Assembly (NCBI GenBank): GCA_036768485.1 | Contig: JAVLUZ010000340.1 | Location: 8,050,925-8,114,924, forward strand | DNA from: Mermis nigrescens | Taxonomy: Eukaryota; Nematoda; Enoplea; Mermithida; Mermithidae | Reading direction: 5' to 3' | DNA length: 64,000 nucleotides | Shown here: in pieces, positions 395-58,585 of the stretch | Layout: the number at the start of each line of letters is the position of its first letter | Position numbering within the stretch: position 1 is the first letter of the stretch | Notes under the pieces: model-generated | The model's database searches: none | The model's input: the letters and a program-made list of their open reading frames with translations, nothing else | Told to the model about the DNA's origin: nothing | Program-made: the position numbers and the translations under genes

Positions 395-1436
395 TTAAAG
401 CTCTACAATATCAGAAACCCACGAGTCAAATTTAGGCGGGTAGCCTCTCCAGCGCACCAAATAATCAGTTTTCTTGTTTTTTTTACGAACTTTTATAATT
501 TTTTCAATCACGAATAAATCATCTGATTTTGAATTAATTTTCTGCAACTCGGTTTCGTAGAAAACACCTTCTAGTTTTTTCCCCTTTTGATCTTCGAGAG
601 TATAAACAGGTGGTGTACTAGCGAACTTCTCTTTAACAATAAAATATTCTTCGGTCCAATTAGGCCAGAACCCTTTTTCGAATGTGCGTTTCACTTTACT
701 TATATGAACTTTATCCCCAATATTAAATTTAAAAACAACGTTCGGTTTGTCAATTCTGAATGCTTTGTTCAAAATCTCTCTCGTTGTTATAGGTAACGTT
801 AGCGGGGGATGTGCCAATGGTTCTATGATAAGAATTATTATAATTTTCAAGCCAATTGGGCAAAATGTCAATATATTTAAATGTATCCTTTTTAGTGAAA
901 TACCGCCACATGCGTTCTTTAAGTGTACGATTAAACCGCTCAACAATACTAGCTTTCATTTCGCTTTTGGTCGTGAAAAAGTCAATAAATTGAGATTTCA
1001 AAAATTGCTGAAATTCCTTGTTTTAGACTCAGTTCCCTGATCCATTTGCAGTTTATATGGTTTACGGCCCAACGATAAAGATGCGATAATTTCTTTACCA
1101 GTTTTTGATTTTAGTGGAAGTGCCCATGAGTACTTTGAGAAATTATCAATACAATTGAGTAGGTACTTAAAATTATGATTGTGGTCGGCTAACGATTGTA
1201 GAATCAACCAAATCTGCTTGCCACTGCTCATCAACCCCGCTAACTATTACCTTGTTACGCGAATAATGTTTCTTTGCAGGTTTATGTAGTGTGTACGTAG
1301 GCTGCTTTTCCAGCCATGCTGTTACCTTTTCATATTTTGCTGCTGGGCGCACCTCTTTCACTCTAGCAAAAAGTTGGTTCGCCCCCGTATACCTAGATTG
1401 AGGTACATAATATAATTTTGTCAACAATTTATCCAT
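395..1436 (-). pseudogene. Polinton/Maverick-type chromodomain integrase, frameshifted
   Basis: Read on the minus strand this is a retroviral-like DDE integrase broken into several frames. The N-terminal part (1173-1436) has the KLYYVPQS...GANQLF opening and TYTLHKPAKKHYSRNKVIV found in transposon-derived integrases of the Polinton/F54H12.3 type. The catalytic core follows with candidate residues in QWQADLVD (first Asp), LQMDQGTE (second Asp) and KASIVERFNRTLKERM (Glu). The C-terminal part (395-946) has the DKVHISKVKRTFEKGFWPNW segment and a chromodomain ending in YLVRWRGYPPKFDSWV. Frames switch near 1200, 1000 and 940, so no single protein is made. It lies divergent to a PolB start 1 kb away, which supports a Polinton origin. 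The family call is recognition from motifs, without an alignment. Confidence 0.8.
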
Positions 1437-13520: not shown

Positions 13521-15130
13521 CTTATGAGCGGATGAGGTTGGCCTGTTGGGCTCTCTAGAATTGTTTCTGTAATGTAGTAGGAGGATGGGATTTTAGACCG
13601 CTAGAGAATACAGTAGGGCCACCACGGTTGAGTTGGCCACACGGGAACGATTATTGGCAGATCGCACCTTTCCGCGCAGATATTGCGCAGAATGCGTGAC
13701 ACTATGCAGAATGGTGGGAACGCGTTCAGCCCTAGTAGGTTTTCCCATGAAAAACTGAACGCATCGATGAACTGAGCGTCTGGGTCGGGGCGCCAAGAGA
13801 CGAATTTGGGCAACTGAGCGTCGCTTCGGTCTGGAAATAGATAGATTTTTAGTGGGCCCATTGCTCCTTGCAAATTATTAAATATTGAAGAATTAAGTTT
13901 CCAATTAGAGCTATCAGAGTGCACGTGAAGCCTCATCCGCTCGTAAGGTTTGGCAACCGGGCAAAAAATGTGCTTGCAGATTAACCTGTCTATCGAGGCA
14001 CCAGCTCCAAATACGCGCTGCAGTATCGCTTGAAAAGGTGGTTTTCGTACCAGCCATTTTATATCAAATAAAGTATGGAAACAGAATTATCCAACATCAG
14101 AGAGACGGATGTTTTAAAACAATTTTTCGCAAATGTTTTCAAAGCAAAAAACGCTGCCAATAGCTCTTTACAATCAATATGCAAACGTAGTCGTAGTCCG
14201 TCTGTTTTCCAGACTACAGATGCAGACTCATCATTGCAGTAAGCACCCCATCCCGCGTTGGATGCGTCCGAAAAAATTGTTAAACTGCTGTCAGGGGGTA
14301 CGATATCACGACCGTTCCAATTTCTTAGTTGTTTTACCCACACGATTAATTCATTCACTTTTCGCGTTCGCTGACAGAATGCAAGGCGCGCTATAAGATC
14401 TGTGATCTTGAATGATATCAATCAAACACAGTTGGAGTTGGCGACTGAATGAATGAGCCTGAGTGTTTGACTGACTGAAGTGAAATGGCCTAAAAGTGTG
14501 GCCAAGTCTCTCGCTATAACGAAATTTGCTCGTAAACATACATACGTCACACCTGTTAATTATTTAGCTTATTTTTTCGGTAACGTGAAACTGCATTGAA
14601 GATGAGTCTAAGGAGAAACCGAGAAACGTGATAGCCTGTGTGGGCTCAGTGACCGACTTTTCTTCAGCAATAACGAAGCCAAGATTTCGTAAAATAAATC
14701 GCAAAAGGCTTAAGTCAAGCCGAAGGCCATCCTGTGTTTGATTGATTAGCAAAATATCGTCTAAATAAATGATGAGACGTAAGCCTAAATGTCTAGCTAT
14801 AGCACTGAAAGGTTTCAATAATTTAGTGATTACGCGGGGAGCCGAAAAAAGACCAAAGGGCATACAAGTGAATGAGTAAATGGCGTTTGCCCATTCAAAA
14901 CAGAAAAACTTTTGATGTTTTCCGATTATAGGAATCGAAAAATACGCATCTTTTAAATCGAGTTTCGCCATGAAATCGTTTCTTCGTATAATATTTTTAA
15001 TGACAATTATAGTTTCCATTTTAGAATGTTCGTATTTAATATATTGATTTAATGGGCGTAAGTTTATAACTGGCCAAAGCCTCCTGGTTTTCTTGGCCGT
15101 GAAAAAAATTCGGGAAATCCAAATATCTTT
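13521..15130 (-). pseudogene. DIRS-type reverse transcriptase and RNase H, degenerate
   Basis: Reverse transcriptase: LWPVINLRPLN (about 15040-15110) precedes MAKLDLKDAYFSIPI, CMPFGLFSAPRV and the catalytic IIYLDDILLI in a 151-codon frame (14564-15019), ending with ITFLGFSLDS. RNase H (14059-14421) shows TIFSDASNAGWGAYC and a DCKELLAAFFALK motif. The next region (13593-13936) has LFPDRSDAQLPKFVSWRPDP and APVWPTQPWWP-like residues, typical of the DIRS segment between RNase H and recombinase. Frames shift at about 14550 and 13960, so it is a pseudogene. An intact enzyme would copy the element RNA. The family is recognised by motif order. Confidence 0.8.
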
Positions 15131-39636: not shown

Positions 39637-39886
39637 CATACGTGGGCAGCAAGAAAATTCTGCGGGGGGGTGCAAGATTTTTTGAAGGTCAAAAAATGGC
39701 CTTAAAAATGGTGGTATGGCGATGAAAAACACCATTTTTCGACGTTTCTCATCAAGCACTATCCATTGGCACCAAAAATTGGTGAAAAACGAAAAAAATT
39801 TTCAAAAATTGAATTCTGGGGGTGTTTTGATTTCTGGGGGGTATTTTGTTTGGGTGCATACCCCAAACCCCCCACGCCCAGGTGTG
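39637..39886 (+). mobile_element. hAT-like MITE, family A, copy 9
   Basis: Starts CATACGTGGGCAGC and ends GCCCAGGTGTG, with a perfect 8-base duplication GTTATGAT (39629-39636 and 39887-39894). It interrupts the PolB pseudogene. Confidence 0.93.
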
Positions 39887-41884: not shown

Positions 41885-41937
41885 CCCAACCCAGGAAACC
41901 TACTATATGCTGAGCTGGATACAAACTTTTTTTGCGG

Positions 41938-42236
41938 ATTTCAAGGATTTCAGTGAGTTCAGGGATGTTAACTTTTTTGGGACTTCAAGGATTTTAGGTA
42001 CTTCAAGGTTTTCAGGGAATTCAAGGTTTTCAGGGACTTTAGGGATTTCAGGGACTTCAGGTAGTTCAGGGGCTTTAGGGATTTCAGGGACTTCAGGGAT
42101 TTCAAGGACTTCAGGGTTTTCAGGGACTTCAGGGATTTCAGGGACTTCAGGGATTTCAGGGACTACAGGGATTTCAGGGACTTCAGAAACTTCAAGGATT
42201 CCAGGGACTTCAGGGATTCCAGGGACTTCAGGATTC
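41938..42236 (+). repeat. 9-bp minisatellite
   Basis: About 30 copies of TTCAGGGAC/TTCAGGGAT with variants. Because the unit is a multiple of three it keeps a frame open (Ser-Gly-Thr/Ile repeats), giving a spurious 115-codon ORF. The opposite strand shows Leu-Lys-Ser repeats. Confidence 0.9.
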
Positions 42237-42690
42237 CGATTTCACGTTGTTTAATAGTTTCGCGAATTCCAGAAAGTTGAATGATTTTAGAGACTTGTGC
42301 GTTTAGTGCTGCTAACTTGGTTTCATTTTTACAAGGATCCCCAAAGAAAAAATTAAAACTTCTCAAAGTCTATAAAAAGACAGTTCTATCGCGACTTAAA
42401 AATGGTAATATGTCAAGAGTTAGACAAGGATTTCGAAATTTTCTGAAGTCAAACTTGGACTCGAAGTAGATGAATCAGTCATGCAGATAGTTTAAATGAT
42501 AGATTTTTATGTCCAATTTTAAAATCAATCAAGAGATTTTTTTATTTTTCTTAAATTTTTTCCTTACGTTTTTTTACAATGGTAATAACATTGTAACACG
42601 AAATAGCACACTGTAACATATACATTATGTACATATGAATAAATCATTGCTTCCACCATTCATTAAACATTTTCGAAAATCCTATAAAAG
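42237..42690. other. Noncoding spacer, no gene seen
   Basis: AT-rich, with short ORFs only. ACAATGGTAATAACATTGT at about 42577 is a small palindrome. Confidence 0.4.
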
Positions 42691-43236: not shown

Positions 43237-43873
43237 GTGTAATGTAGTGCCTAAGTACGTACGTTTGGGGGTTCGAATGAATGGGTCAGTCTAGTTTGTT
43301 GGTATGATTTGGTGGCCAATTTTGTATTTGTCAAACGCTTTACACAATGCCAATAAGCACAAATATGTACGGACGACTAAACTCAGTTAAACTCAGCTAC
43401 ACGCATACAGTGACGTAACTTCAACTCTTGCTAATGCTCACGGGATAACACACACACAGTGCCTATGACGGCAATCGTATTTATACGAACGAGTTCTTAC
43501 GTCACATGCTAATTAGGAGTAGCTCAACACATAATTACAACGCGAACGATTTTTAACTCGTGCTCATAAGAGCCGGCGTGCACGTAGGTGAGTAAAATAG
43601 CAGCAGCAAGAATGGAAACAAATTAGATTTTCAATTTATAGATTAGCTACACGCTTATATACATTTACGTGCAACTGAGATAAAGAACGATCAGAAAGGA
43701 TTGGCGGGCACGTTTACACTGACCAATTGACGTTCAAAAATAGAAACGAAGAAAATTACCAATTTTAACTAGAGTAACGCTTAGCTAATAACCATGCTTT
43801 TTACACGTAGCAAAAGTCGCGGAAAAAGTATGTAAAAATAGAGGAGTTGACGTGTATTTAGGTACATTTGTCA
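43237..43873 (-). repeat. 3' LTR of the intact Ty3-type retrotransposon
   Basis: 637 bp, TG...CA ends, matching 51645-52282 with only about five visible differences (for example at 43246, 43436, 43494 and 43548). On the minus strand a TATAAATA box lies at 43478-43485. The near identity indicates a recent insertion. Confidence 0.93.
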
Positions 43874-43885
43874 CACCTCTTCCCT
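43874..43885 (-). promoter_or_regulatory. Polypurine tract of the intact LTR element
   Basis: Minus-strand AGGGAAGAGGTG directly precedes the 3' LTR, the position where plus-strand cDNA synthesis is primed. Confidence 0.8.
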
Positions 43886-44141: not shown

Positions 44142-47100
44142 TTATCCGACCTCGCCCCCACCGTCCTCCACAGCATCCTGAAATTTCCTTAGACGGTTGA
44201 TATGGGTCTTTTCAGGGGTGGAGTCGGGCTTATCCATGGGGACTATCAGGACATTGGGCGCCTCTAAACCCAACACCCTATATGGTCCGTGCCAATAGAC
44301 TGTGTATTTTGGAGATTTACCTGGTTTAACAACAGGCTTATGCATGTAAACGAGATCTCCTATTTTAAGTTCTAAAGGTTTTGCATTCCTGTCGTAGTAC
44401 ATCTTTTGGTTGATCTGTGAAAGTTCAATTTTCTTGCGTGCAGTTTCCCATACATGTGTCATGCGCTCACAAAACTCTTGTTTATAATTCTCATAGTCAG
44501 CGACATATGGACTTCTGTAAACACTAAATGCTTCGTCTGATGGTAAGCGTGCATCTCTACCATACAAAAGAAAAAATGGAGTTTCTCTCGTGCTCTCATG
44601 GATTGATGTTCGGTATGCAAAGAGTACATAAGGAATAAAAACGTCCCAATCTCTATGAGAACTAGAAACATACATGGAAAGCATTGTATGCAGTGTCTTA
44701 TTAAACCGTTCAACCATGCCGTCTGTTTCAGGGTGGTATGGTGTAGTGCTCAGTTTTTGCGTATTACAAAGTTTTGTAATTTCTAAAAAGAGTGAAGACA
44801 TAAAGTTACTTCCACAATCGGATAAAAGTTCTTTTGGGGCGCCAAATCTGCAAACAATTTTTTCCACAAAAAGTCGAGCTATTGTCTCGGCTGTTGTATT
44901 CTCTACTGCAAAAACTTCAGGCCATTTAGTTAGGTAGTCCATGAATACAACTAAATATTTATTTCCTGACAATGAAAGGGGTAGAGGGCCTACCACATCA
45001 ACCGCAATGCGTTTGAACGGTTCTCCCTCGACCTTAAGAGGTTGCAGTGGCGCTCTAAAAGAACGATTTGGCTTTTTATGAGAGAAACAAATTGTGCAAT
45101 TTTTGCAGTTTTGAATGATGTCAGAGTTCATGTTGTGCCAATAAAAACGTTTTCGAATTTTGTCTAAGGTTTTTCGTATCCCTAAATGTCCTGCAAAAAC
45201 GTCACTGTGATATAACTCAAAAATTTCTGGTATCATGTGTTTAGGTACGATAACTTGAAAACCTTCGATATTAGGCTTTCCGAGTCTGTGTAATACGTCA
45301 TCAAGAAGAACCGAATGTCTGGCTTCAGCTATAACAAAGTTTTGTTCTGAATCCTTCAAGCTTGTATCGATTTTCAGTTGAGTAAGGTACGTTTTTATCA
45401 TTTTGCAGTATGCGTCTTTGTCTTGTTCGTCACGCATAGAGCGCGTTATTTGAGTGGGTTCTGCTAATGATTTTGAAGCTGATCGATTTTCTTCTTCCTC
45501 CTCTGTTAACTCAGGTTCGAGACCTTGTACAAAGTTAACAGGATGCTTTATACGTGAGAGTGCATCAGCATCCGAGTTGCTTTTACCTGGTCGGTACTTA
45601 ATAATTACATCATATTCGAGTAGAGCCATAGACCAACGAGCTAATCTAGAGGAAGTGGATGGATTTTTCTGTATATATTGCAATGGAGCATGATCTGTCA
45701 TTAAAATGCATTTTTGACCATAAATGTATGGGCGAAATTGTTTTAATGCCCAAATGATAGCTAAAGCTTCAAGCTCAATTACTGCATAATTTTTCTCGCT
45801 TTTTGATAGACTCCTGCTTGCATATGCTATTGGTCGTTCAAATCCATTTACTTCTTGTGCTAAAACTGCGCCTAATGCGTCTTTACTAGCATCTGTTTTA
45901 AGTAAGAATGGCTTTGTATAATCTGGATAGGTTAGAACTGGTGCGCTTGTTAAAGCTAATTTGAGTGCATCAAAAGAAGCTTGGCATTCTCGTGTCCATT
46001 TAAACTGATTGTCCTTTTTGAGTAATTTATTCATTGGAGCTGCAATGTGTGCGAAGTCTGCAACAAAACGTCTGTAAAATGATGCCAGACCTAAAAATGA
46101 TTTCACTTCTGTCGGATTAGTTGGAACAGGAAAATTTTGAACTGCCAGAACCTTGTTCTGATCGACTTTTAAACCTTCAGAGGATACTGTAAACCCTAAA
46201 AATGATACTTCTTCTCGAAAAAAGTCGCATTTGCTAAACTTTAGCTTTAAACCAGCGTCCTTTAATCGTTTAAAAACTTGTGTCAAATTTTCTATGTGTT
46301 CAGAAAAAGTTGAAGAGCAGACAAGGATGTCATCAATGTATACAAAACAAGTGTGCCAAATAAGACCTTCAAGAACTTTTTCCATTGTACGCTGAAATGT
46401 AGATGGAGCATTGCATAACCCAAAAGCCATGACATTAAACTCGAAAAGACCGGAAAATGATGTGAAAGCTGTTTTTTCCCGATCTTTCTCCTCAATTTCA
46501 ATTTGCCAATACCCACTAGCCAGATCTAAAGTTGAGAAAAATTTTGAATTTTCCAAAGTGTCTAAGATGTCTTGTATCCTTGGAAGAGGATAAACGTCCT
46601 TTTTTGTCAAATCATTCAGTTTCCTGTAGTCTACACAAAAACGAAAAGTTTTATCCTTTTTCTGGACTAGGACCACTGGGCTGGCCCAAGGGCTTTTGGA
46701 GGGACGTATTAAGCCTCTAGAGAGCATGCTTTGTATGTTCTCATCTAAAACTTGACGTAGTGCAAAAGGAACACGATAGGGTCTTTGTTTGGTAGGTGCT
46801 GCATCACCTGTGTTGATTTCATGCTTGCAGATGCTTGTTCGTCCGAGATCGTCCTCAGAAAACGAGAAAATGTCCGAAAAGTTTGTCAAAAGTTCATGAA
46901 AAATGACTTTTTCACTTTCTGAGCATGTTTCAGGGATTTTGGTTGAAATTTGCTGCTTAAGCGACGATTTTGGCGAACCTTCTTTGATACTGTATACAAC
47001 TCCTATGTTTTGTCTGATTGTATGCAGATTTCCTAACAGCGTGTTAGCATATAAGTGTATCGGCGCTAGGCTAGGATTTGTGCATAGAATCGCGGTGGTC

Positions 47101-50100
47101 TTTGGCAATGGCTGTTCAAAGAGCGTAACTGACATGATGATGTTATAACGATGCATAGTATGTAAAGATGGCACAAAAAGTTGGTGTATATGGTTGCTAG
47201 GATCGGTTTGTATTGAGACCTCTAAGTACTGTGAGGATCTAGGTGCAACAGATGTGGATTGCACCAGGTTTATGGGGTACAAAGGCAATACCTCGTCTTC
47301 TTCAATGGGCAATGGTGGAGGATCATGTTGTGGGAGACTTAACCCTTCCACTAATGGGATTCTGGGCAGACCATCAAAATCGACCCACTTTTCAACAATA
47401 TTGATTGTTACCTGCCCATTACAAAGCAAGAGAAAATCTGTCCCCAAGACGAGCTGTTGGGGGGAGTCCTCCATAACATGAAAGCCATGGTTGAAGACAA
47501 TGTTGCCGAATTCAATGCTAGCTACCATAAAACCTTTTAAGCTGACTGTGTGCTTGGAAATTGATGTGACGTTTCTGATTGGTGCCAGGAGTTCGATAGG
47601 CTCTAAGTCTCTTTGTCTGCGAACTTCGTTTATCCGTAAAAAATGTGAGTAGCTAATCAGTGTTAATGATGCTCCGGTATCAATCAATGCGAGTGTATGA
47701 ACAAACCCAACTTTGCAAAAAATGATTGGTTGTTGGATAGGGTCATGTTCATCATCTTGATACCAATATGCTGGGGAAGATGGAGCATTTTCAGCGAGAG
47801 TGAGAGCTGGAGAAGGTGGTGCATGATGTGTGCCTGCTTCCTGATGAAATCCCAATGTTGTAGCATGAAAACCGTAGTCTTGTGTTTCAAGGTTTTCGTA
47901 CATAAATTGGGTTCTTGCACTACCAATATTTACTGCGGAAGTAGCGAAGTTGATGGACAATGTCCCACCAAAACGATATATTATATCACGACCGATAAGT
48001 AGATCACATGGGCAAGATATAGCAAGGTTAAAAATCGTGTCACATCGATGGTGACCTATTTTGACATTCCCCCAGATCTGTCCCAAGACTGGAACTTCGT
48101 GTCCAGTGAATGAAGTGTTCTGCCATCTTGTAGGCATAACAGAAGTGATAGCTTGTCCTCTCTGGAACAAATTTTGTTGCATACGTTCCATAAAAGAGAT
48201 GCTCATAAATGATACAGCTGAAGCTGGATCAATTATAGCTCTTCCTGCAAACCCTGATACATGAATAAGTATCACTGGCTGTTCCATGCCACCTGTGTTA
48301 ATGCAAAAAACGGATGTTGTTTGTATGCGTGGCAGCAATGGTGGAATTTCCTTTTTCCCACTACCCAACTCTAAGGTAGCATTTCTTGCATTGTAAGTCA
48401 CAAGTTGATCCCTTGCTGAAGCTTTTGCATCTTTCTTTTTTGATTTTCTACAAAAGCATCGCTTAATGCAGGAGCAGATAATATATGTAATTAACCGGTA
48501 CTTAAATGCTAAAAAGAAAAGATAGCCTAATCCTGCAAGTGCTAGAACAATGATGAGGGTCTTTACAACAGCTTTGATAGGACCTTGCAAGAATCGACCA
48601 ACAGATTCACTTATTCCGCTGGTTGATGTCCCAATCAGATGTTCTAGACCTTTTGCTGGCGCTGTCATCAATCGACTAGCAGAATCACCTGCAGAGGATA
48701 TCAGCTCCTGGAATGACTCGGGATTGAATGAGAGTCCTGTGTGGTGTTCTGAAAGATCTTTTATGTGTGTTTGCAAACGAAACATTTTGTTGATATAATT
48801 TCGAAACATGCCTAGGCCACTGACAATGTTCCCTATCTGATCATAGAACAGTGCAGGTGCGTCAAAAATCGTTATATTCAAGTCTGGACGAAATGATAGT
48901 TCTGCCGGGATCATGCTGACGTGTACTGGGCCCTTCAAAGTACGCCACCTGGCTTGACTGTCCCTATATATTCCATGAATATGATTTTCACAGCTCACGA
49001 TCATTGAATCATTAACCAGATCGCGGCTACCCGGCGACACAAAATACAGGTGCTGATTCACTTTTACCGGTAGTAATTCATAACAGGTACCTTGAACCTT
49101 GTAATCCCAAAAAATCTGTGTAGCTTTAACCGTTTTGCACTTCCATATCATTAAAACCTCACCGGCAACTTGTGCAAAGATATCCGACCTTTGGAGTAGG
49201 GTACGAGCTCCTAACGTAGGATCTAGTCTGATCAATTGCTTGATGAAATAGAGTTGTTGATTTCGCAAGTGACATAGGTTTAGCCACAATTCAGTGAAAT
49301 CATTCAGCTCCATTTCACGCATTTTCAGTTCTAGATACTGTAATTTTGCATTCACAGGGTCGCTTGCAGGCAGCGTCACTGGATTGACAAGAGCTTTGTC
49401 CCTCCAATGAGCTGTCTGAGCATCCCACACGTAATCGTCTTCTAAACGCTTATGCGCTTGGTTAGGTTGATCAGGCCTGACTGGAAGACGTACTTTGAAT
49501 GCAATGCCCTGCTGCGTGACAGCAGTACCCTGAGGTAAACAGTGTCGACCTGTAATTTCTTTTTCAGAGGTAACGGCTGTAAAGGCACCTTGGAGTTTGC
49601 TAATGATCCAAAAGTGACCACTTTGTCTAGCCGTAAAATTACCTAATTCTGTGAATTTACAGGGACTGTACACATAGTTAGGGTTCCAAACAATGGTCCC
49701 ATCCTGCGTGTCACAGAAACCGCTAGGCGCAAAGCACGACCCCACATTACCAAGGTCACTCAAGAGTGTGTGTCCGTCTTGGGTGGCTAATTGACCCGCT
49801 TCCAAAATAAAATTCGTCACTTTCGAGCATTTTGTTTTACAGCACCAAGAATAATCTATTTGTAACGTGTTGTTTGTTGTCCATAAGTCATTCTCGTGTT
49901 TGAGAGATTGCAGCGTTTGACCTCGATATGAGCTAGACATGTATGCATGTGTACATTCAGAAGCCTCAACTGATTTTTCTTCTATGGTATCAGAAAGCAC
50001 GCTGCGCGCGCCAAAAAAGCTAACGTATGTGCAAACTGTGCGAGTTCTTAATCGACATTTCCAGGCTGGAATTTGCTCAGGCATGAAATTTGGTTGAAAA

Positions 50101-51581
50101 ACTGTTACATTCAGTGTGTGTGTCTCATTCCTGGGGTGAATATTACAGTTCATGGGTTCTGGGATGGTTATTGGGTGACCGCTTCTGCTATTTCCACATT
50201 GAAAAAATTGATAGGATGTATTGTCTAAATTATCTAAGGTAGCCCATACGGAAAAGTTTAAAAAGGTTGAGAAAAAGAAAAAGTAGAAAAATAATTGAAA
50301 AAGTCGAAAATATTTTGAAAAATTGAGCCGAAAAGCGGAACTCTGTGTTCCTTTCTGTGATTTTGACTTTCTGTTCTTTGTTTTACGATGCGACTTAGAC
50401 ATCATTAGCGTATCAGTATTAGTAGCGATTGAACATACTTTAGTCATTTTAGACGAGTGTAAAGTATTACAATTTGTACCTATACCAAGACTAACAGACG
50501 GATTATTCTTTAAACTACCTGCAAGTTGATTTAGCTGTTGACGCAGAATAGTTACTTCAGACTCCAGCTGGACTTCACGATCCGATTTAGTGTTGGTTGT
50601 TACCAAATTAACGCTTGGACGACTGTTTGGCATCTGGTATGCTTGTGATTGCAGTCGGTTGTTGCCAAAATTGCGATTTACGGTACTATGGTTCACAGTG
50701 TGTCGTGACGTTGCCTGATCTGCTTGTTTTTTACGACAAACCATTTGAATATGCCCAACACGACGACAATAGAAGCAAATAGGGCGTCCGTCAGTTGTTT
50801 GGCTTGTTTTCTTGTCGCGACCATTTGCATGACGTCTGACTGGGTTGTGTGATGATGATGGTGAATTTTGAGGTGCTTGCTGTGATGGATTCAGCAGAGC
50901 ACATGCCCAGGCGGTGCGATCCTCTTGCAGTGTGAGACCTTGCTCAATTTTGCGCTGGGCCTCACACTGTCTGGCTGACAAATCCGCATCAGTGAATGTG
51001 GTAGGATTACGAATTACCACATCCCGACGTAGATCTCGGTGTAAACCATTAATAAAAAATCTTTTTGCCATCTGGTCTCGGGCGTCCAAGGGTAATTCGG
51101 GGTAAGCATCGCATACTAATTGTTGTATAGCGACTGAGAAATCGTTCACAGACTCCTGTTGCCCCTGCCGTCGGCTATGAAGTTCAGTTGATTTTAAGTC
51201 CGTTAGATGTACAGGTCGAAAACGTCTGCGCAGGACGTCAATCAGTCCATGAAAATCCAAAGCATCCCTCTCCTGCTCAGGAATACCATTATAAACGATT
51301 TCGGCAGCTTCCCGAAGCATGGAGGGAAGGTAACGCCGTTTGAACGCATCATCCCATTGAAGTGCGGCTGCCACATGGTTAAATCGAGTTAACCACAGGT
51401 CAAAGTTTTCAGTAGATCGCCCATGAAAGTATTCAACTTCAGCTTTAGGAATAATCGTTCGATTGGTCTTAATCGCATCTATATTTCGTTGTTGTTGTAA
51501 AATAGCATCAGTCACTTGAGCACGAAGCGTTTCAATGTTATCCTTTAAATCGTCCATAGCTTGCTTTCTAGTTCGTGTCAT
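44142..51581 (-). CDS. Ty3-type retrotransposon polyprotein: Gag, Env-like, two PR-like, RT, RH, IN
   Basis: One frame of 2479 codons, without stops, 63 bases from the 5' LTR. Residues 1-420 are Gag, with a CCHC knuckle C269-x2-C272-x4-H277-x4-C282. Residues 421-1075 are an envelope-like membrane glycoprotein. Two retropepsin-like domains follow: one with DPAS at 1118-1121 and GRD at 1197, and one with canonical DTGAS at 1301-1305 and LGTDFL near 1379. Reverse transcriptase (about 1585-1800) has VYIDD at 1747-1751. RNase H (about 1880-2010) has TDAS (D1897), E1936 and D1963. Integrase has an H2125/H2132/C2162/C2165 zinc region, a DD35E triad D2195, D2255, E2291 and a C-terminal GPY motif near 2432. 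All catalytic motifs and both LTRs are intact, so the element may be active. Expression as one frame would need proteolysis, and probably splicing or signal cleavage, to release each part. Domain order is seen directly. Activity is inferred. Confidence 0.95.
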   Translation of the reverse strand: MTRTRKQAMDDLKDNIETLRAQVTDAILQQQRNIDAIKTNRTIIPKAEVEYFHGRSTENFDLWLTRFNHVAAALQWDDAFKRRYLPSMLREAAEIVYNGIPEQERDALDFHGLIDVLRRRFRPVHLTDLKSTELHSRRQGQQESVNDFSVAIQQLVCDAYPELPLDARDQMAKRFFINGLHRDLRRDVVIRNPTTFTDADLSARQCEAQRKIEQGLTLQEDRTAWACALLNPSQQAPQNSPSSSHNPVRRHANGRDKKTSQTTDGRPICFYCRRVGHIQMVCRKKQADQATSRHTVNHSTVNRNFGNNRLQSQAYQMPNSRPSVNLVTTNTKSDREVQLESEVTILRQQLNQLAGSLKNNPSVSLGIGTNCNTLHSSKMTKVCSIATNTDTLMMSKSHRKTKNRKSKSQKGTQSSAFRLNFSKYFRLFQLFFYFFFFSTFLNFSVWATLDNLDNTSYQFFQCGNSRSGHPITIPEPMNCNIHPRNETHTLNVTVFQPNFMPEQIPAWKCRLRTRTVCTYVSFFGARSVLSDTIEEKSVEASECTHAYMSSSYRGQTLQSLKHENDLWTTNNTLQIDYSWCCKTKCSKVTNFILEAGQLATQDGHTLLSDLGNVGSCFAPSGFCDTQDGTIVWNPNYVYSPCKFTELGNFTARQSGHFWIISKLQGAFTAVTSEKEITGRHCLPQGTAVTQQGIAFKVRLPVRPDQPNQAHKRLEDDYVWDAQTAHWRDKALVNPVTLPASDPVNAKLQYLELKMREMELNDFTELWLNLCHLRNQQLYFIKQLIRLDPTLGARTLLQRSDIFAQVAGEVLMIWKCKTVKATQIFWDYKVQGTCYELLPVKVNQHLYFVSPGSRDLVNDSMIVSCENHIHGIYRDSQARWRTLKGPVHVSMIPAELSFRPDLNITIFDAPALFYDQIGNIVSGLGMFRNYINKMFRLQTHIKDLSEHHTGLSFNPESFQELISSAGDSASRLMTAPAKGLEHLIGTSTSGISESVGRFLQGPIKAVVKTLIIVLALAGLGYLFFLAFKYRLITYIICSCIKRCFCRKSKKKDAKASARDQLVTYNARNATLELGSGKKEIPPLLPRIQTTSVFCINTGGMEQPVILIHVSGFAGRAIIDPASAVSFMSISFMERMQQNLFQRGQAITSVMPTRWQNTSFTGHEVPVLGQIWGNVKIGHHRCDTIFNLAISCPCDLLIGRDIIYRFGGTLSINFATSAVNIGSARTQFMYENLETQDYGFHATTLGFHQEAGTHHAPPSPALTLAENAPSSPAYWYQDDEHDPIQQPIIFCKVGFVHTLALIDTGASLTLISYSHFLRINEVRRQRDLEPIELLAPIRNVTSISKHTVSLKGFMVASIEFGNIVFNHGFHVMEDSPQQLVLGTDFLLLCNGQVTINIVEKWVDFDGLPRIPLVEGLSLPQHDPPPLPIEEDEVLPLYPINLVQSTSVAPRSSQYLEVSIQTDPSNHIHQLFVPSLHTMHRYNIIMSVTLFEQPLPKTTAILCTNPSLAPIHLYANTLLGNLHTIRQNIGVVYSIKEGSPKSSLKQQISTKIPETCSESEKVIFHELLTNFSDIFSFSEDDLGRTSICKHEINTGDAAPTKQRPYRVPFALRQVLDENIQSMLSRGLIRPSKSPWASPVVLVQKKDKTFRFCVDYRKLNDLTKKDVYPLPRIQDILDTLENSKFFSTLDLASGYWQIEIEEKDREKTAFTSFSGLFEFNVMAFGLCNAPSTFQRTMEKVLEGLIWHTCFVYIDDILVCSSTFSEHIENLTQVFKRLKDAGLKLKFSKCDFFREEVSFLGFTVSSEGLKVDQNKVLAVQNFPVPTNPTEVKSFLGLASFYRRFVADFAHIAAPMNKLLKKDNQFKWTRECQASFDALKLALTSAPVLTYPDYTKPFLLKTDASKDALGAVLAQEVNGFERPIAYASRSLSKSEKNYAVIELEALAIIWALKQFRPYIYGQKCILMTDHAPLQYIQKNPSTSSRLARWSMALLEYDVIIKYRPGKSNSDADALSRIKHPVNFVQGLEPELTEEEEENRSASKSLAEPTQITRSMRDEQDKDAYCKMIKTYLTQLKIDTSLKDSEQNFVIAEARHSVLLDDVLHRLGKPNIEGFQVIVPKHMIPEIFELYHSDVFAGHLGIRKTLDKIRKRFYWHNMNSDIIQNCKNCTICFSHKKPNRSFRAPLQPLKVEGEPFKRIAVDVVGPLPLSLSGNKYLVVFMDYLTKWPEVFAVENTTAETIARLFVEKIVCRFGAPKELLSDCGSNFMSSLFLEITKLCNTQKLSTTPYHPETDGMVERFNKTLHTMLSMYVSSSHRDWDVFIPYVLFAYRTSIHESTRETPFFLLYGRDARLPSDEAFSVYRSPYVADYENYKQEFCERMTHVWETARKKIELSQINQKMYYDRNAKPLELKIGDLVYMHKPVVKPGKSPKYTVYWHGPYRVLGLEAPNVLIVPMDKPDSTPEKTHINRLRKFQDAVEDGGGEVG
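47382..47729 (-). other. Canonical retropepsin domain of the polyprotein
   Basis: Residues about 1285-1400: LALIDTGASLTLIS with the catalytic Asp at 1301 and the second hydrophobic-Gly-x-Asp motif LVLGTDFLLL. Retropepsins act as dimers. This domain alone has the DTG needed for peptide cleavage of the polyprotein. Confidence 0.85.
47937..48290 (-). other. Degenerate retropepsin-like domain preceding the protease
   Basis: Residues about 1098-1215: hydrophobic strand VILIHVSGFAGRAIIDPAS, where a D-T/S-G-A triad is expected but DPAS is found, and later CDLLIGRDIIYRFGG matching the second protease motif. The order and spacing (about 80 residues) match the next domain, so this looks like a duplicated copy that lost the central Gly. 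It may be structural or act as a heterodimer partner. Confidence 0.65.
48357..50321 (-). other. Envelope-like glycoprotein segment inside the polyprotein
   Basis: Residues about 421-1075. A hydrophobic run at 426-446 could be an internal signal sequence. It is followed by a roughly 560-residue Cys-rich region with many N-x-S/T sites (for example near 485, 491, 648, 857 and 902), as expected for a lumenal glycoprotein. A single strong transmembrane segment lies at about 1003-1027 and is followed by a Cys/basic tail (CSCIKRCFCRKSKKK). The ectodomain contains a GTIVWNP-C pattern that resembles viral glycoproteins of the kind captured by invertebrate retrotransposons. I cannot assign the viral family without a search. 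No clear furin site is seen. It sits in the same frame as Gag and protease, not after integrase. Confidence 0.75.
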
Positions 51582-51619: not shown

Positions 51620-51644
51620 ATGTTCAAATCCAGTTGACACCCCA
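51620..51644 (-). promoter_or_regulatory. Primer binding site of the intact LTR element
   Basis: Adjacent to the 5' LTR. The plus strand here ends in CCA and reads like a tRNA 3' end, with a T-loop (GTTCAAATCC) and an acceptor-like TTGACACC. The match therefore extends well beyond the usual 12-18 bases, giving strong evidence of tRNA priming. The tRNA identity is unresolved; the acceptor recalls leucine-type tRNAs, and one base before CCA seems to be missing. Confidence 0.8.
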
Positions 51645-52282
51645 TGTAATGTAGGTGCCTAAGTACGTACGTTTGGGGGTTCGAATGAATGGGTCAGTCT
51701 AGTTTGTTGGTATGATTTGGTGGCCAATTTTGTATTTGTCAAACGCTTTACACAATGCCAATAAGCACAAATATGTACGGACGACTAAACTCAGTTAAAC
51801 TCAGCTACACGCATACAGTGACGTAACTTCAACTCTTGCGAATGCTCACGGGATAACACACACACAGTGCCTATGACGGCAATCGTATTTATACGAACGA
51901 GTACTTTACGTCACATGCTAATTAGGAGTAGCTCAACACATAATTACATCGCGAACGATTTTTAACTCGTGCTCATAAGAGCCGGCGTGCACGTAGGTGA
52001 GTAAAATAGCAGCAGCAAGAATGGAAACAAATTAGATTTTCAATTTATAGATTAGCTACACGCTTATATACATTTACGTGCAACTGAGATAAAGAACGAT
52101 CAGAAAGGATTGGCGGGCACGTTTACACTGACCAATTGACGTTCAAAAATAGAAACGAAGAAAATTACCAATTTTAACTAGAGTAACGCTTAGCTAATAA
52201 CCATGCTTTTTACACGTAGCAAAAGTCGCGGAAAAAGTATGTAAAAATAGAGGAGTTGACGTGTATTTAGGTACATTTGTCC
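51645..52282 (-). repeat. 5' LTR of the intact Ty3-type retrotransposon
   Basis: 638 bp, nearly identical to the left LTR. The minus-strand TATAAATA box at 51886-51893 would drive transcription toward the gag start at 51581. The outermost base is C in place of A, so the terminal dinucleotide differs from the other LTR. No matching target duplication is seen next to it. Confidence 0.93.
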
Positions 52283-53663
52283 AACTAATGCTAAACCTCC
52301 AACGTTTCGCAAACACATTCAACTCGCTGATGCAGAAAAAGCTGAAATGCTAACGCCTGCGCGTTTACTCGCAGAGCAACACGCCGATGACGAATTACAT
52401 AAAATTCGCGTCGCGTTGAATGATTTAACAACAAAAAAATATTGTGACGAATTTTTCTCGTAAACAATATTCTTTTTTGTTGTTTTCAACCTAAGCGTTT
52501 GCCAACCATTGTGCATCAAATTGTAATACCAAAATCATTGCATCATTTCGTATTAATCGAATTTCATGACTCTATTTTTGGAGCACATTTTTCATCACGC
52601 AAAATTCTACCCACTATGCAAATGCGTTATTGGTGGCCGTGCATGGAAAATGATGTGATCGCGTGGTGTAGGAATTGTGATGTCTGCTTACAACGTAAGG
52701 TCGCATTATATTCCACATCTGTTCCTTTGCAACCAATTGAAGTATCCGCGCCTTTCGAACTCATTGCGTGTGATTGCTTGCATATGCGCGATCTCCCTCT
52801 GGGAATGACCAAATCGTAGTCTTTATGGATTATTTTACCAAATATGTTGAAGCTTTTGCTGTTTCTGATATAAAAGCAACAACCATCGCAAATCTTTTGC
52901 TTAGAGAAATTATCCCACGTTATGGAGTTCCCAAAAAATTTTTGACAGACCAGGGTTCAAATTTTACATCTGCCCTAATTTCGGAAGTCTGTAATTTACT
53001 AATCGTTCAAAAAATCTTTACGACCCCATATCACCCTCAATGTGATGATCTTGTGGAACGTTATAATTGCACTTTAATTGACAGTTTGTCTAAATTGAGT
53101 GCACGAAACCAGTATGATTGGGAGCAATTTTTGCCATTTGCATTGTTTGCATATTGCGCAACTCCGCAATTGTCAACTAATATCTCTCCTTTTGAAATGC
53201 TATATGGTTGCAAACCCGTGTTTCCTCTCGACACTTTACTTATAAATGACTTCACTATAAATCCAAATTCACAACCTATTGCGGAAAAATACCTCATTGA
53301 TTTAAAGCTGACCTTGCAAGATCTGCATGAAATCGCATCTAAAAATTTAGCTCAAGCGCGTAAACAGCAAAAATTGCAATATAACAAATCTGTCACTGCA
53401 ACCAATTTCTCTGTTTCGGATATTGTCTATCTTAATAATACATCGGTAATTCAACCTGAAATCGGCAAATTATCACCTAAACGTATCGGTCCTTATTGAA
53501 TTATTGCATTACCTACACCGGAGACTGCAAAAATTGCTTATGTCTATAATCCGCTAATTATGCATCATGTTCATTGGAATAGACTCCTACCTGAGCCCAA
53601 ACTACCATACTCGGATCTAATTGCCAAGAAGCATGCATATGTTCCTGGCAATTTCGTTTTGTA
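52283..53663 (+). pseudogene. Ty3-type integrase end of a second retrotransposon
   Basis: Downstream of the young LTR this plus-strand stretch opens in the linker between RNase H and integrase (LADAEKAEMLTPARLLAEQ). It then has a zinc region (LIEFHDSIFGAHF...CRNCDVCLQRK) and the core with the first Asp in IACDCLH. After a frameshift near 52800 come FMDYFTKYVEAF, LTDQGSNF (second Asp) and LVERYN (Glu). The C-terminal LSPKRIGPY is followed by a stop, with readable coding to 53663. The RT and RNase H that should precede it are absent: the sequence beyond the left LTR is Merlin, not this element. The element is dead. Confidence 0.85.
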
Positions 53664-58325: not shown

Positions 58326-58585
58326 CATACGTGGGCAGCAAGAAATTTCTGGGGGGTGCAAGATTTTTTGAAGGTCAAAAAATGGCCTTAAAAACGATGG
58401 TATGGTGATAAAAACACCATTTTTCGACGTTTCTCATCAAGCACTATCCATTGGCATCAAAAAATTGCGAAAAAAGTGAAAAAAATTTTCAAAAATTGAA
58501 TTCTGGGGGGGTATTTTGATTTCTGGGGGGGTATTTTGGTTTCTGGGGGGGTGCATACCCCCCAAACCCCCCACGCCCAGGTGTG
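58326..58585 (+). mobile_element. hAT-like MITE, family A, copy 10
   Basis: Starts CATACGTGGGCAGC and ends GCCCAGGTGTG, with a perfect 8-base duplication GTCGCGAC (58318-58325 and 58586-58593), itself a palindrome. It interrupts the end of the gag-like ORF. Confidence 0.95.

What the first reader, a model, noticed from the sequence alone, without database searches (positions are those of the whole stretch)
48357..50321. Envelope-like glycoprotein inserted between Gag and protease in one retrotransposon frame
The sequence shows one uninterrupted frame of 2479 codons. After the Gag zinc knuckle there is a hydrophobic segment, then a Cys-rich region with many N-glycosylation sites, one transmembrane helix and a Cys/basic tail, and only then protease, RT, RNase H and integrase. 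Known errantivirus-like and Tas-like elements carry env after integrase. An internal env would need a different release and topology logic, for example an internal signal sequence, splicing or host proteases. The frame and LTRs are intact, so the order is probably functional and not a chance fusion.
Basis: partly seen in the sequence, partly recalled or inferred. Interest (0 to 1): 0.92.

Follow-up and report, generated by a model that had tools for sequence, protein, structure and literature searches.

The report
Envelope protein inside retrotransposon polyprotein
A large family of virus-like jumping genes in this genome carries its membrane-fusion (envelope) protein in the middle of one giant protein, between the shell protein and the replication enzymes, instead of at the end as in known relatives, which suggests that the giant protein is threaded through a membrane and then cut up.

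Summary
Window 44142-51581(-) is one 2479-codon frame between LTRs 99.2% alike. Residues 421-1075 match class III viral fusion glycoproteins (Pfam Monjiviricetes_fusion, E 1e-18), with a signal-peptide-like segment before and one TM helix and basic tail after; protease, RT, RNase H and integrase follow. The host genome shows 102 or more places coding for relatives. In 20 of 20 relatives read, env lies between the gag region and protease/RT (gag untested in 2). Of 144 scored RT relatives, 77 have a listed env upstream, none downstream, 67 are undecided. The ectodomain is under purifying selection (dN/dS 0.10-0.15), is enriched in sequons where Gag and Pol are not, keeps 16 invariant cysteines, and its tree largely agrees with the RT tree. 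No shared splice acceptor was found before env. Best model: a Gag-Env-Pol polyprotein enters the ER by the internal signal peptide, leaving Gag and Pol in the cytosol and Env in the lumen (as in flaviviruses), then is cut by signal peptidase and the element's protease. The architecture is shown; the processing is inferred. Ten literature searches found no report of this order.

The parts
51645..52281 (-). 5' LTR (sense)
   Evidence: self-blastn, 99.2% to the other LTR
51622..51644 (-). probable primer-binding site directly after the 5' LTR, starts TGG
   Evidence: sequence next to the LTR, same in copy L022; complementarity to a tRNA 3' end is inferred, no tRNA of the host was searched
44142..51581 (-). 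single open frame Gag-Env-PR-RT-RH-IN, 2479 aa
50322..51581 (-). Gag (Retrotrans_gag) with basic linker
   Evidence: Pfam E 1.6e-5, 25.5 bits against a cut-off of 24.1
50736..50777 (-). CCHC zinc knuckle
   Evidence: motif
50241..50321 (-). internal signal-peptide-like segment; possible cleavage after ...SVWA (50241)
   Evidence: hydropathy; cleavage site inferred by eye
48561..50240 (-). Env ectodomain, Cys-rich, N-glycosylation sequons
48894..49355 (-). match to Monjiviricetes_fusion (class III fusion glycoprotein)
   Evidence: PF24664 E 1.1e-18; 13 of 13 representatives
48504..48560 (-). single transmembrane helix
   Evidence: hydropathy 2.47
48357..48503 (-). Cys-rich basic tail
   Evidence: net charge +7 in 25 residues in L022
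47985..48230 (-). first, degenerate protease-like copy (DPA in place of DTG)
   Evidence: not a Pfam hit of its own
47436..47681 (-). aspartic protease, DTG active site
   Evidence: Pfam PF13975
46185..46667 (-). reverse transcriptase, YIDD
   Evidence: Pfam PF00078 E 2.8e-36; motif
45612..45923 (-). RNase H
   Evidence: Pfam PF17917 E 5e-39
44730..45248 (-). integrase zinc-binding and core domains; GPY motif at 44280-44288
   Evidence: Pfam PF17921, PF00665; motif
43876..43884 (-). short polypurine tract before the 3' LTR
   Evidence: sequence GGGAAGAGG
43238..43875 (-). 3' LTR (sense)
   Evidence: 43238-43872; last 3 bases by comparison with L022

Best explanation
This is a member of a large, diverse clade of Ty3/gypsy-type, env-bearing LTR elements whose class III-type fusion glycoprotein lies inside the polyprotein, between Gag and protease (shown). 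The likely mechanism (inferred): unspliced genomic RNA is translated into Gag-Env-Pol; Gag is made in the cytosol; the internal signal peptide brings the ribosome to the ER and threads the Env ectodomain into the lumen, where it is cut by signal peptidase, glycosylated and disulphide-bonded; the TM helix stops transfer, so that the tail and protease-RT-RNase H-integrase are made on the cytosolic side; the element's protease then frees Pol from the Env tail and Gag from its signal-peptide anchor. Until then every Gag is tied to the membrane and, across it, to Env, which could replace a matrix/myristate signal and put Gag, Env and Pol in one place in fixed ratio.
For: Order gag region-Env-PR/RT in 20 of 20 fetched relatives (near-duplicates included; gag of L039 and L040 not tested by a family search), with a single frame from Gag through integrase in 10 of these 20 and in the window copy. 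77 of 144 RT loci have a listed env upstream on the same strand, 0 downstream. PF24664 in 13 of 13 representatives. A hydrophobic stretch before the ectodomain in 13 of 13 by best 15-residue window (1.83-2.66) and in 13 of 14 by the stricter 19-residue scan (L036 missed), often with AxA-like ends (by eye), although its letters are poorly conserved (21-52% identity). One TM with a net-positive tail (+2 to +13) in 13 of 13. Sequons 101 seen against 63 expected in ectodomains, 60 against 66 in Gag (11 families), 35 against 37 in Pol, as expected if only Env is lumenal. Ectodomain dN/dS 0.095-0.154 in the 5 of 8 chosen pairs with finite dS. Env and RT trees share 7 of 10 splits, 0 of 2000 label shuffles reach that. 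A protease motif D-[TSC]-G lies between TM and RT in 11 of 11 looked at (Pfam in 9 of 10, several under its cut-off).
Against: No RNA, protein or cleavage data. In 5 of 20 loci (L025, L032, L034, L039, L040) the frame breaks within gag or between gag and the ectodomain; I cannot tell decay from a programmed event. L034 has a second hydrophobic stretch 37 residues before the first, which could change the topology there. Charge before the signal segment is weak in some families (0 in L036, +1 in L027, L035 and L037). A single polyprotein gives Gag, Env and Pol in equal amounts, unlike most retroviruses. The fold was not confirmed: the single-sequence model is poor (mean pLDDT 37). 67 of 144 RT relatives were not shown to carry env, and 61 of 102 env places had no RT in the scored list; both lists are capped. 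Copy counts include places on contigs that look like duplicate assemblies. The host is not identified.
Confidence: 0.65

Rival explanations
1. Env is expressed separately: a subgenomic mRNA (splice from the leader or the gag start to just before the signal peptide, or internal initiation) makes Env or Env-Pol; the in-frame fusion with Gag serves only Gag-Pol read-through.
For: Retroviruses make Env from spliced RNA and Cer1 makes CERV from a spliced RNA (PMC10309623, passages). Methionines lie near the signal peptide in several families (by eye). Three of 11 families do have a strong acceptor pattern somewhere in the last 450 nt before Env (L027, L028, L037).
Against: No strong acceptor (TTT(T)YAG) in those 450 nt in 8 of 11 families; the looser pattern occurs in 4 of 11, at no shared place (L034 and L039 not scanned). 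By eye, L024, L034 and L037 have no Met within about 50 residues of the signal peptide. One frame from Gag through integrase is kept in 10 of the 20 fetched loci over large divergence.
Confidence: 0.2
2. The env part works as a regulated intron: removing it gives Gag-Pol, keeping it gives Gag-Env-Pol.
For: The element could need more Gag-Pol than Env; the frame is open on both sides; donor-like sites occur in gag of 7 of 11 families and acceptor-like sites between TM and RT in 9 of 11.
Against: These sites are scattered and not shared in position among the 11 families, and acceptor-like sites are also expected by chance (1.3-2.6 per stretch). The scan uses simple patterns, and the host's splice rules are unknown.
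Confidence: 0.08
3. The glycoprotein is kept only as a membrane anchor or budding device for Gag, without fusion activity (an intracellular, non-infectious role).
For: The position ties Gag to a membrane; nothing here shows fusion.
Against: 68 invariant columns in 13 sequences, 16 of them Cys, low ectodomain dN/dS, and many divergent lineages that keep it.
Confidence: 0.12
4. The segment is an ordinary Gag or spacer region, or a chance fusion in one copy.
For: None found.
Against: Pfam class III match in 13 of 13, recurrence of the order in 20 of 20 loci, separate Gag and protease domains on each side.
Confidence: 0.01

Closest known systems
Errantivirus (gypsy-type Metaviridae with Env)
   Same: Ty3/gypsy-type Gag, PR-RT-RH-IN order, LTRs, an env
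   Different: Errantivirus env likely came from baculovirus (PMC12440569, parts 1-2 of 5 read) and is a separate ORF after pol (recalled); here a class III-type glycoprotein lies between Gag and protease in one frame
Anakin (BEL/Pao element with a chuvirus glycoprotein)
   Same: glycoprotein of Monjiviricetes/chuvirus type captured by an LTR element
   Different: BEL/Pao element (PMC7642597, passages; these place Env of Roo, Tas and Cer-7 downstream of the polyprotein, and Anakin's own order was not stated in the passages). PMC10084718 (passages) found no clear capture of such a glycoprotein by Gypsy elements
Atlas virus and related hookworm belpaoviruses
   Same: Env fused in one uninterrupted polyprotein frame
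   Different: order Gag-Pol-Env with a class II phlebovirus-like Env at the C terminus, Belpaoviridae (PMC9094657, passages)
Tas and Cer-7 (nematode BEL elements)
   Same: one of them has an env called herpesvirus-derived, i.e. gB-like: Tas by my recall, but Cer-7 by the order of words in PMC7642597 (passages)
   Different: BEL/Pao; env downstream of the polyprotein (same passage)
Flavivirus polyprotein (C-prM-E-NS)
   Same: capsid, then internal signal peptide, lumenal glycoprotein, TM, cytosolic enzymes (recalled; analogy of topology only)
   Different: unrelated RNA virus; class II fusion protein; serine protease (recalled)
Cer1 of C. elegans
   Same: Ty3/gypsy element with no stop between gag and pol
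   Different: its extra ORF (CERV part) lies after pol and acts in RNA export, not as a glycoprotein (PMC10309623, passages)

Membership tests
Ty3/gypsy (Metaviridae) | Ty3/gypsy-type Gag capsid with zinc knuckle | tested here: met
   Retrotrans_gag above cut-off in the window; Retrotrans_gag and/or Ty3_capsid in 10 of 10 relatives given, L027, L031 and L034 only below cut-off; knuckle in the window
Ty3/gypsy (Metaviridae) | pol order PR-RT-RH-IN | tested here: met
Ty3/gypsy (Metaviridae) | GPF/Y motif in integrase | tested here: met
   GPY at 44280-44288 in the window (relatives not looked at); hallmark as stated in PMC12440569
Ty3/gypsy (Metaviridae) | 4-6 bp target-site duplication, TG...CA LTR ends | tested here: inconclusive
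   copy L022 has TG...CA and GTAA on both sides; the window copy shows no matching duplication and an altered 5' end; L024 shows no clear duplication
Ty3/gypsy (Metaviridae) | RT groups with reference Ty3/gypsy in a tree | not tested
   no reference sequences at hand
Class III viral fusion glycoproteins (Monjiviricetes / gB type) | sequence-profile match | tested here: met
   PF24664 67 bits against cut-off 27 in the window, matched by 13 of 13 at E 0.01 or better; gB chains are the best solved-structure hits of the profile, E 5.5e-4
Class III viral fusion glycoproteins (Monjiviricetes / gB type) | fold and bipartite fusion loops | tested here: inconclusive
   model of pLDDT 37 is unusable; fusion loops not mapped
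Errantivirus | env after integrase as a separate ORF | tested here: not met
   env between Gag and PR; 266 nt between stop codon and 3' LTR in the window; 0 of 144 RT loci with a listed env downstream
Belpaoviridae (Anakin, Atlas, Tas) | BEL/Pao RT and C-terminal env | tested here: not met
   env position not met; GPY integrase and Ty3-type Gag point to gypsy; no BEL tree was made
works like a flavivirus-type polyprotein (analogy) | internal signal peptide and TM flanked by cytosolic domains | tested here: met
   by hydropathy, tail charge and sequon distribution only; no topology experiment
works like a flavivirus-type polyprotein (analogy) | cleavage by signal peptidase and the element's own protease | not testable with these tools
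   needs experiment

The most novel reading that the evidence does not exclude
A widespread clade of enveloped Ty3/gypsy retroelements replicates through a membrane-threaded Gag-Env-Pol polyprotein: one translation product places capsid, fusogen and enzymes on the proper sides of the membrane, so Env doubles as the membrane anchor of Gag. This would be a gene order and an assembly logic new to reverse-transcribing viruses, with a class III fusogen captured once and inherited with pol.
Probability: 0.6. Interest if true: 0.9.

Novelty: new variant of a known kind. Interest (0 to 1): 0.82.

Why it matters
Retroviruses and the env-bearing LTR elements that I know of, or found in print here, put env after pol. 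A diverse, successful clade with env in the middle shows that the order is not fixed, suggests a third way of making Env (polyprotein threading instead of splicing or C-terminal fusion), and suggests a membrane-targeting route for Gag that needs no matrix signal. It also bears on how LTR elements turn into viruses: here a glycoprotein of negative-strand-virus type seems to have been captured by a Ty3/gypsy element and kept through deep diversification.

Tried and rejected
Chance fusion, spacer or Gag origin: rejected. Removal or separate expression of env by splicing: no shared sites, but only simple consensus patterns, partly of nematode type, were used and the host is unknown. Single-sequence search of solved structures gave nothing significant (best E 0.14); the profile search also gave ATP synthase b chains (E 0.007-0.009) at the TM/tail region, taken as noise. 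Relatives in viral contigs and in prokaryote genome contigs: none confirmed. Rfam on the window: no match at gathering score. Host identity: Rfam SL1 gave no match with 50 of 193622 candidates scored, and the 14 control genomes were silent too, so nothing follows; a search for nematode cuticle collagen (PF01484) did not complete, nor was a PF24664 family search of the genome. Rows left out: the alignments and trees use the window plus 12 of the 20 loci (near-duplicates L021-L023, L025, L030, L032, L038, L040 left out); searches use L022 for the window family; dN/dS was run on 8 chosen pairs; the splice scan on 11 families (L034, L039 left out); Pfam of gag and of the protease stretch on 10 loci each; second fragments of one env hit were not entered.

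Full report
What is there. The minus strand of the window carries one open frame of 2479 codons, 44142-51581, between two LTRs, 43238-43872 and 51645-52281, 99.2% alike over 637 positions with 3 mismatches and 2 gaps. A stretch that starts TGG and is probably the primer-binding site follows the 5' LTR, and a short purine tract precedes the 3' LTR. Read in pieces, the frame holds a Ty3/gypsy-type Gag with one CCHC knuckle, then the segment of the finding (48357-50321, residues 421-1075), then aspartic protease, RT, RNase H and integrase. About 266 nt lie between the stop codon and the 3' LTR, so there is no room for an env after integrase.

What the segment is. It matches Pfam Monjiviricetes_fusion (PF24664, E 1.1e-18, 67 bits against a cut-off of 27), and weakly, below cut-off, Borna disease virus G and herpesvirus gB. 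All 13 representatives in the alignment match PF24664 at E 0.01 or better; 8 also match BDV_G and 7 gB. A profile of the 13 finds herpesvirus gB as the best solved structures (best E 5.5e-4; the next hits, ATP synthase b chains at E 0.007-0.009, I take as noise); the window sequence alone finds nothing significant there. This is the class III fusion-protein group. A single-sequence structure prediction failed (mean pLDDT 37), so the fold is not confirmed here.

It is a whole clade. The window's assembly (524 Mb, species not named) gave 99 matches to the segment, many only 32-43% identical, yet often in open frames of 1900-2709 codons. Merging the matches gives 102 distinct env places; add more that were not merged into this count. 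Some of these are probably duplicate assemblies of one place (C117 and C191 match at the same positions; two places on C61 and two on C687 have the same spacing), so insertions are fewer than places. I fetched 20 loci and placed Gag, Env, two protease pieces, RT, RNase H and integrase by tblastn, piece by piece. In 20 of 20 the env lies between the gag region and protease/RT on one strand. They include near-duplicates; 12 representatives besides the window were kept for alignments, 31-40% identical to the window's segment and 48-68% in RT. In 10 of 20 (L022, L026-L029, L031, L033, L036-L038) one frame runs from Gag through integrase. In the others the frame is cut or shifted: L021 lacks RT onwards in the stretch; L023 lacks the first part of gag; L024, L030 and L035 break in integrase or RNase H; L025 breaks at the start of gag and in RT; L032, L034, L039 and L040 break within gag or between gag and the ectodomain. 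The window's gag did not find the gag of L027, L039 and L040. For L027 and for L037, whose hits are almost the same as those of L040, a Ty3-type capsid was found by Pfam; L039 and L040 themselves were not tested. Protease is found by Pfam in 9 of 10 tail-to-RT stretches given, several under its cut-off (L033 not), and by active-site motif in 11 of 11.

Is env ever elsewhere? An RT search scored 144 of 3841 first-look candidates. Of these 144, 41 plus 36 = 77 have an env or 108 upstream on the same strand within 4 kb; 0 have one downstream within 6 kb and 0 on the other strand. The remaining 67 are undecided, because the env lists are capped: one RT locus that had no listed env (C11) was read and has an env upstream (L042). 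Ten of the 67 are a family whose pol frame is 1066 codons and which may lack env. Conversely, 61 of the 102 env places had no RT in the scored list. One locus with an RT identical to the window's (C161) has its LTR joined straight to pol at window position 46992: an internal deletion took gag, env and protease together.

Selection and history. In 8 chosen pairs of lineages the env ectodomain gives dN/dS of 0.095-0.154 in the 5 pairs with finite dS (L034/L036 0.119, L037/L039 0.111, L037/L027 0.095, L026/L033 0.114, L026/L028 0.154); RT gives 0.026-0.048 in the 3 finite pairs; gag is looser, 0.17-0.37 in 6; the signal segment gives 0.20-0.22 in 3 pairs and 1.16 in L034/L036, on at most 30 codons. 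Most dS values exceed 1, so the ratios are rough. Sixty-eight columns of the segment are invariant in 13 sequences, 16 of them Cys. Twelve of 13 ectodomains have exactly 16 cysteines and the window's family has 17. Env and RT trees share 7 of 10 splits; no shuffle of 2000 does so (mean 0.25, maximum 3); the disagreements are the places of L039 (env support 100, RT 58), L029, and the order of L026, L033 and L035. So env has mostly been inherited with pol since before these lineages split, which points to one old capture (inference).

How it probably works. Each family has a hydrophobic stretch just before the ectodomain (13 of 13 by best 15-residue window; L036 fell under the 19-residue threshold), whose letters are poorly conserved, as for a signal peptide, and which often ends in AxA-like residues (by eye). 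L034 has a second such stretch 37 residues before, which could change its topology. After the ectodomain comes one TM helix, 514-546 residues downstream of the first conserved CG, and a net-positive tail (+2 to +13 in 25 residues, 13 of 13; before the signal segment the charge is 0 to +6). Glycosylation sequons exceed the shuffled expectation only in the ectodomain (101 against 63), not in Gag (60 against 66, 11 families) or Pol (35 against 37). This is what a chain with Gag outside, Env inside the ER lumen and Pol outside would show. It is the topology of the flavivirus polyprotein (recalled). Cleavage by signal peptidase and by the element's protease, and the idea that the signal-peptide tether replaces a matrix signal, are inference.

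Alternatives. A shared splice acceptor before Env was not found: the strong pattern is absent from the last 450 nt in 8 of 11 families (present in L027, L028, L037) and the loose one occurs in 4 of 11 at no shared place; donors in gag and acceptors before RT are scattered. Separate expression of Env is therefore less likely but not excluded, since only simple consensus patterns were used and the host is unknown. Loss of fusion activity with retention as an anchor is possible, but fits the conservation less well.

Comparison with print. In the library held, I found Gag-Pol-Env single frames with a class II Env (Atlas virus, PMC9094657, passages), a chuvirus-type glycoprotein in BEL/Pao Anakin (PMC7642597, passages), a statement that no clear capture of Jingchuvirales glycoprotein by Gypsy elements was seen (PMC10084718, passages), Cer1 with the CERV ORF after pol (PMC10309623, passages), and small fusogen-like proteins upstream of gag, or after pol in 7 of 22 Lepidoptera consensus sequences (PMC11952523, passages). 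Troyka (PMC12440569, parts 1-2 of 5 read) has no env. Passages of PMC3315495, PMC10714607 and PMC11599104 held nothing to the point. Ten searches, among them 'gag-env-pol', 'between gag and pol' with envelope, and several phrases for env before pol, showed no report of env between Gag and protease in their listings. Most subscription papers, preprint servers and Repbase are not covered, and a study of metazoan errantiviruses that I recall did not appear in these listings.

Verdict. The anatomy is firm; the processing is a well-supported but untested model. I file it as a new variant of a known kind: an env-bearing Ty3/gypsy-type element with a new gene order.

Noticed in passing
window 47985-48230 and 47436-47681; L031:3909-5705: Tandem protease domains: the window family has a degenerate first copy (DPA) and a canonical second (DTG); L031 has two copies, both with D-[ST]-G. 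The other 9 families looked at show one.
   Followed up: partly
L041:4815-5476: A deletion derivative: LTR joined straight to pol, with gag, env and protease gone, RT 100% identical to the window's.
   Followed up: yes
window 43238 and 52281 flanks: The window copy has no matching target-site duplication, and its outer 5' LTR end differs (TTG for TGT), although the LTRs are 99.2% alike; copy L022 has a GTAA duplication.
   Followed up: partly
window 41926-42257: Array of a unit with 9-base spacing close to the 3' LTR flank.
   Followed up: no
window 39665-39798 and 58351-58483: Two repeat stretches, 91-94% alike, about 18.7 kb apart, on either side of the element.
   Followed up: no
window 398-946(-), 14567-15019(-), 52774-53496(+): Frames with a chromodomain, an RT and an integrase core match, probably pieces of other retroelements; the last lies about 500 nt from the element's 5' LTR.
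   Followed up: no
host genome contigs C61, C135 and C687: A subfamily with an env match in an open frame of 2930 codons, the longest seen, in 5 places; the two on C61 and the two on C687 have the same spacing, so one pair may be a duplicate assembly.
   Followed up: no
L034, L039, L032, L040: Gag region in a different or interrupted frame from Env-Pol; in L034 the two frames overlap by 178 nt, in L039 by 31 nt. Decay or a programmed shift.
   Followed up: no
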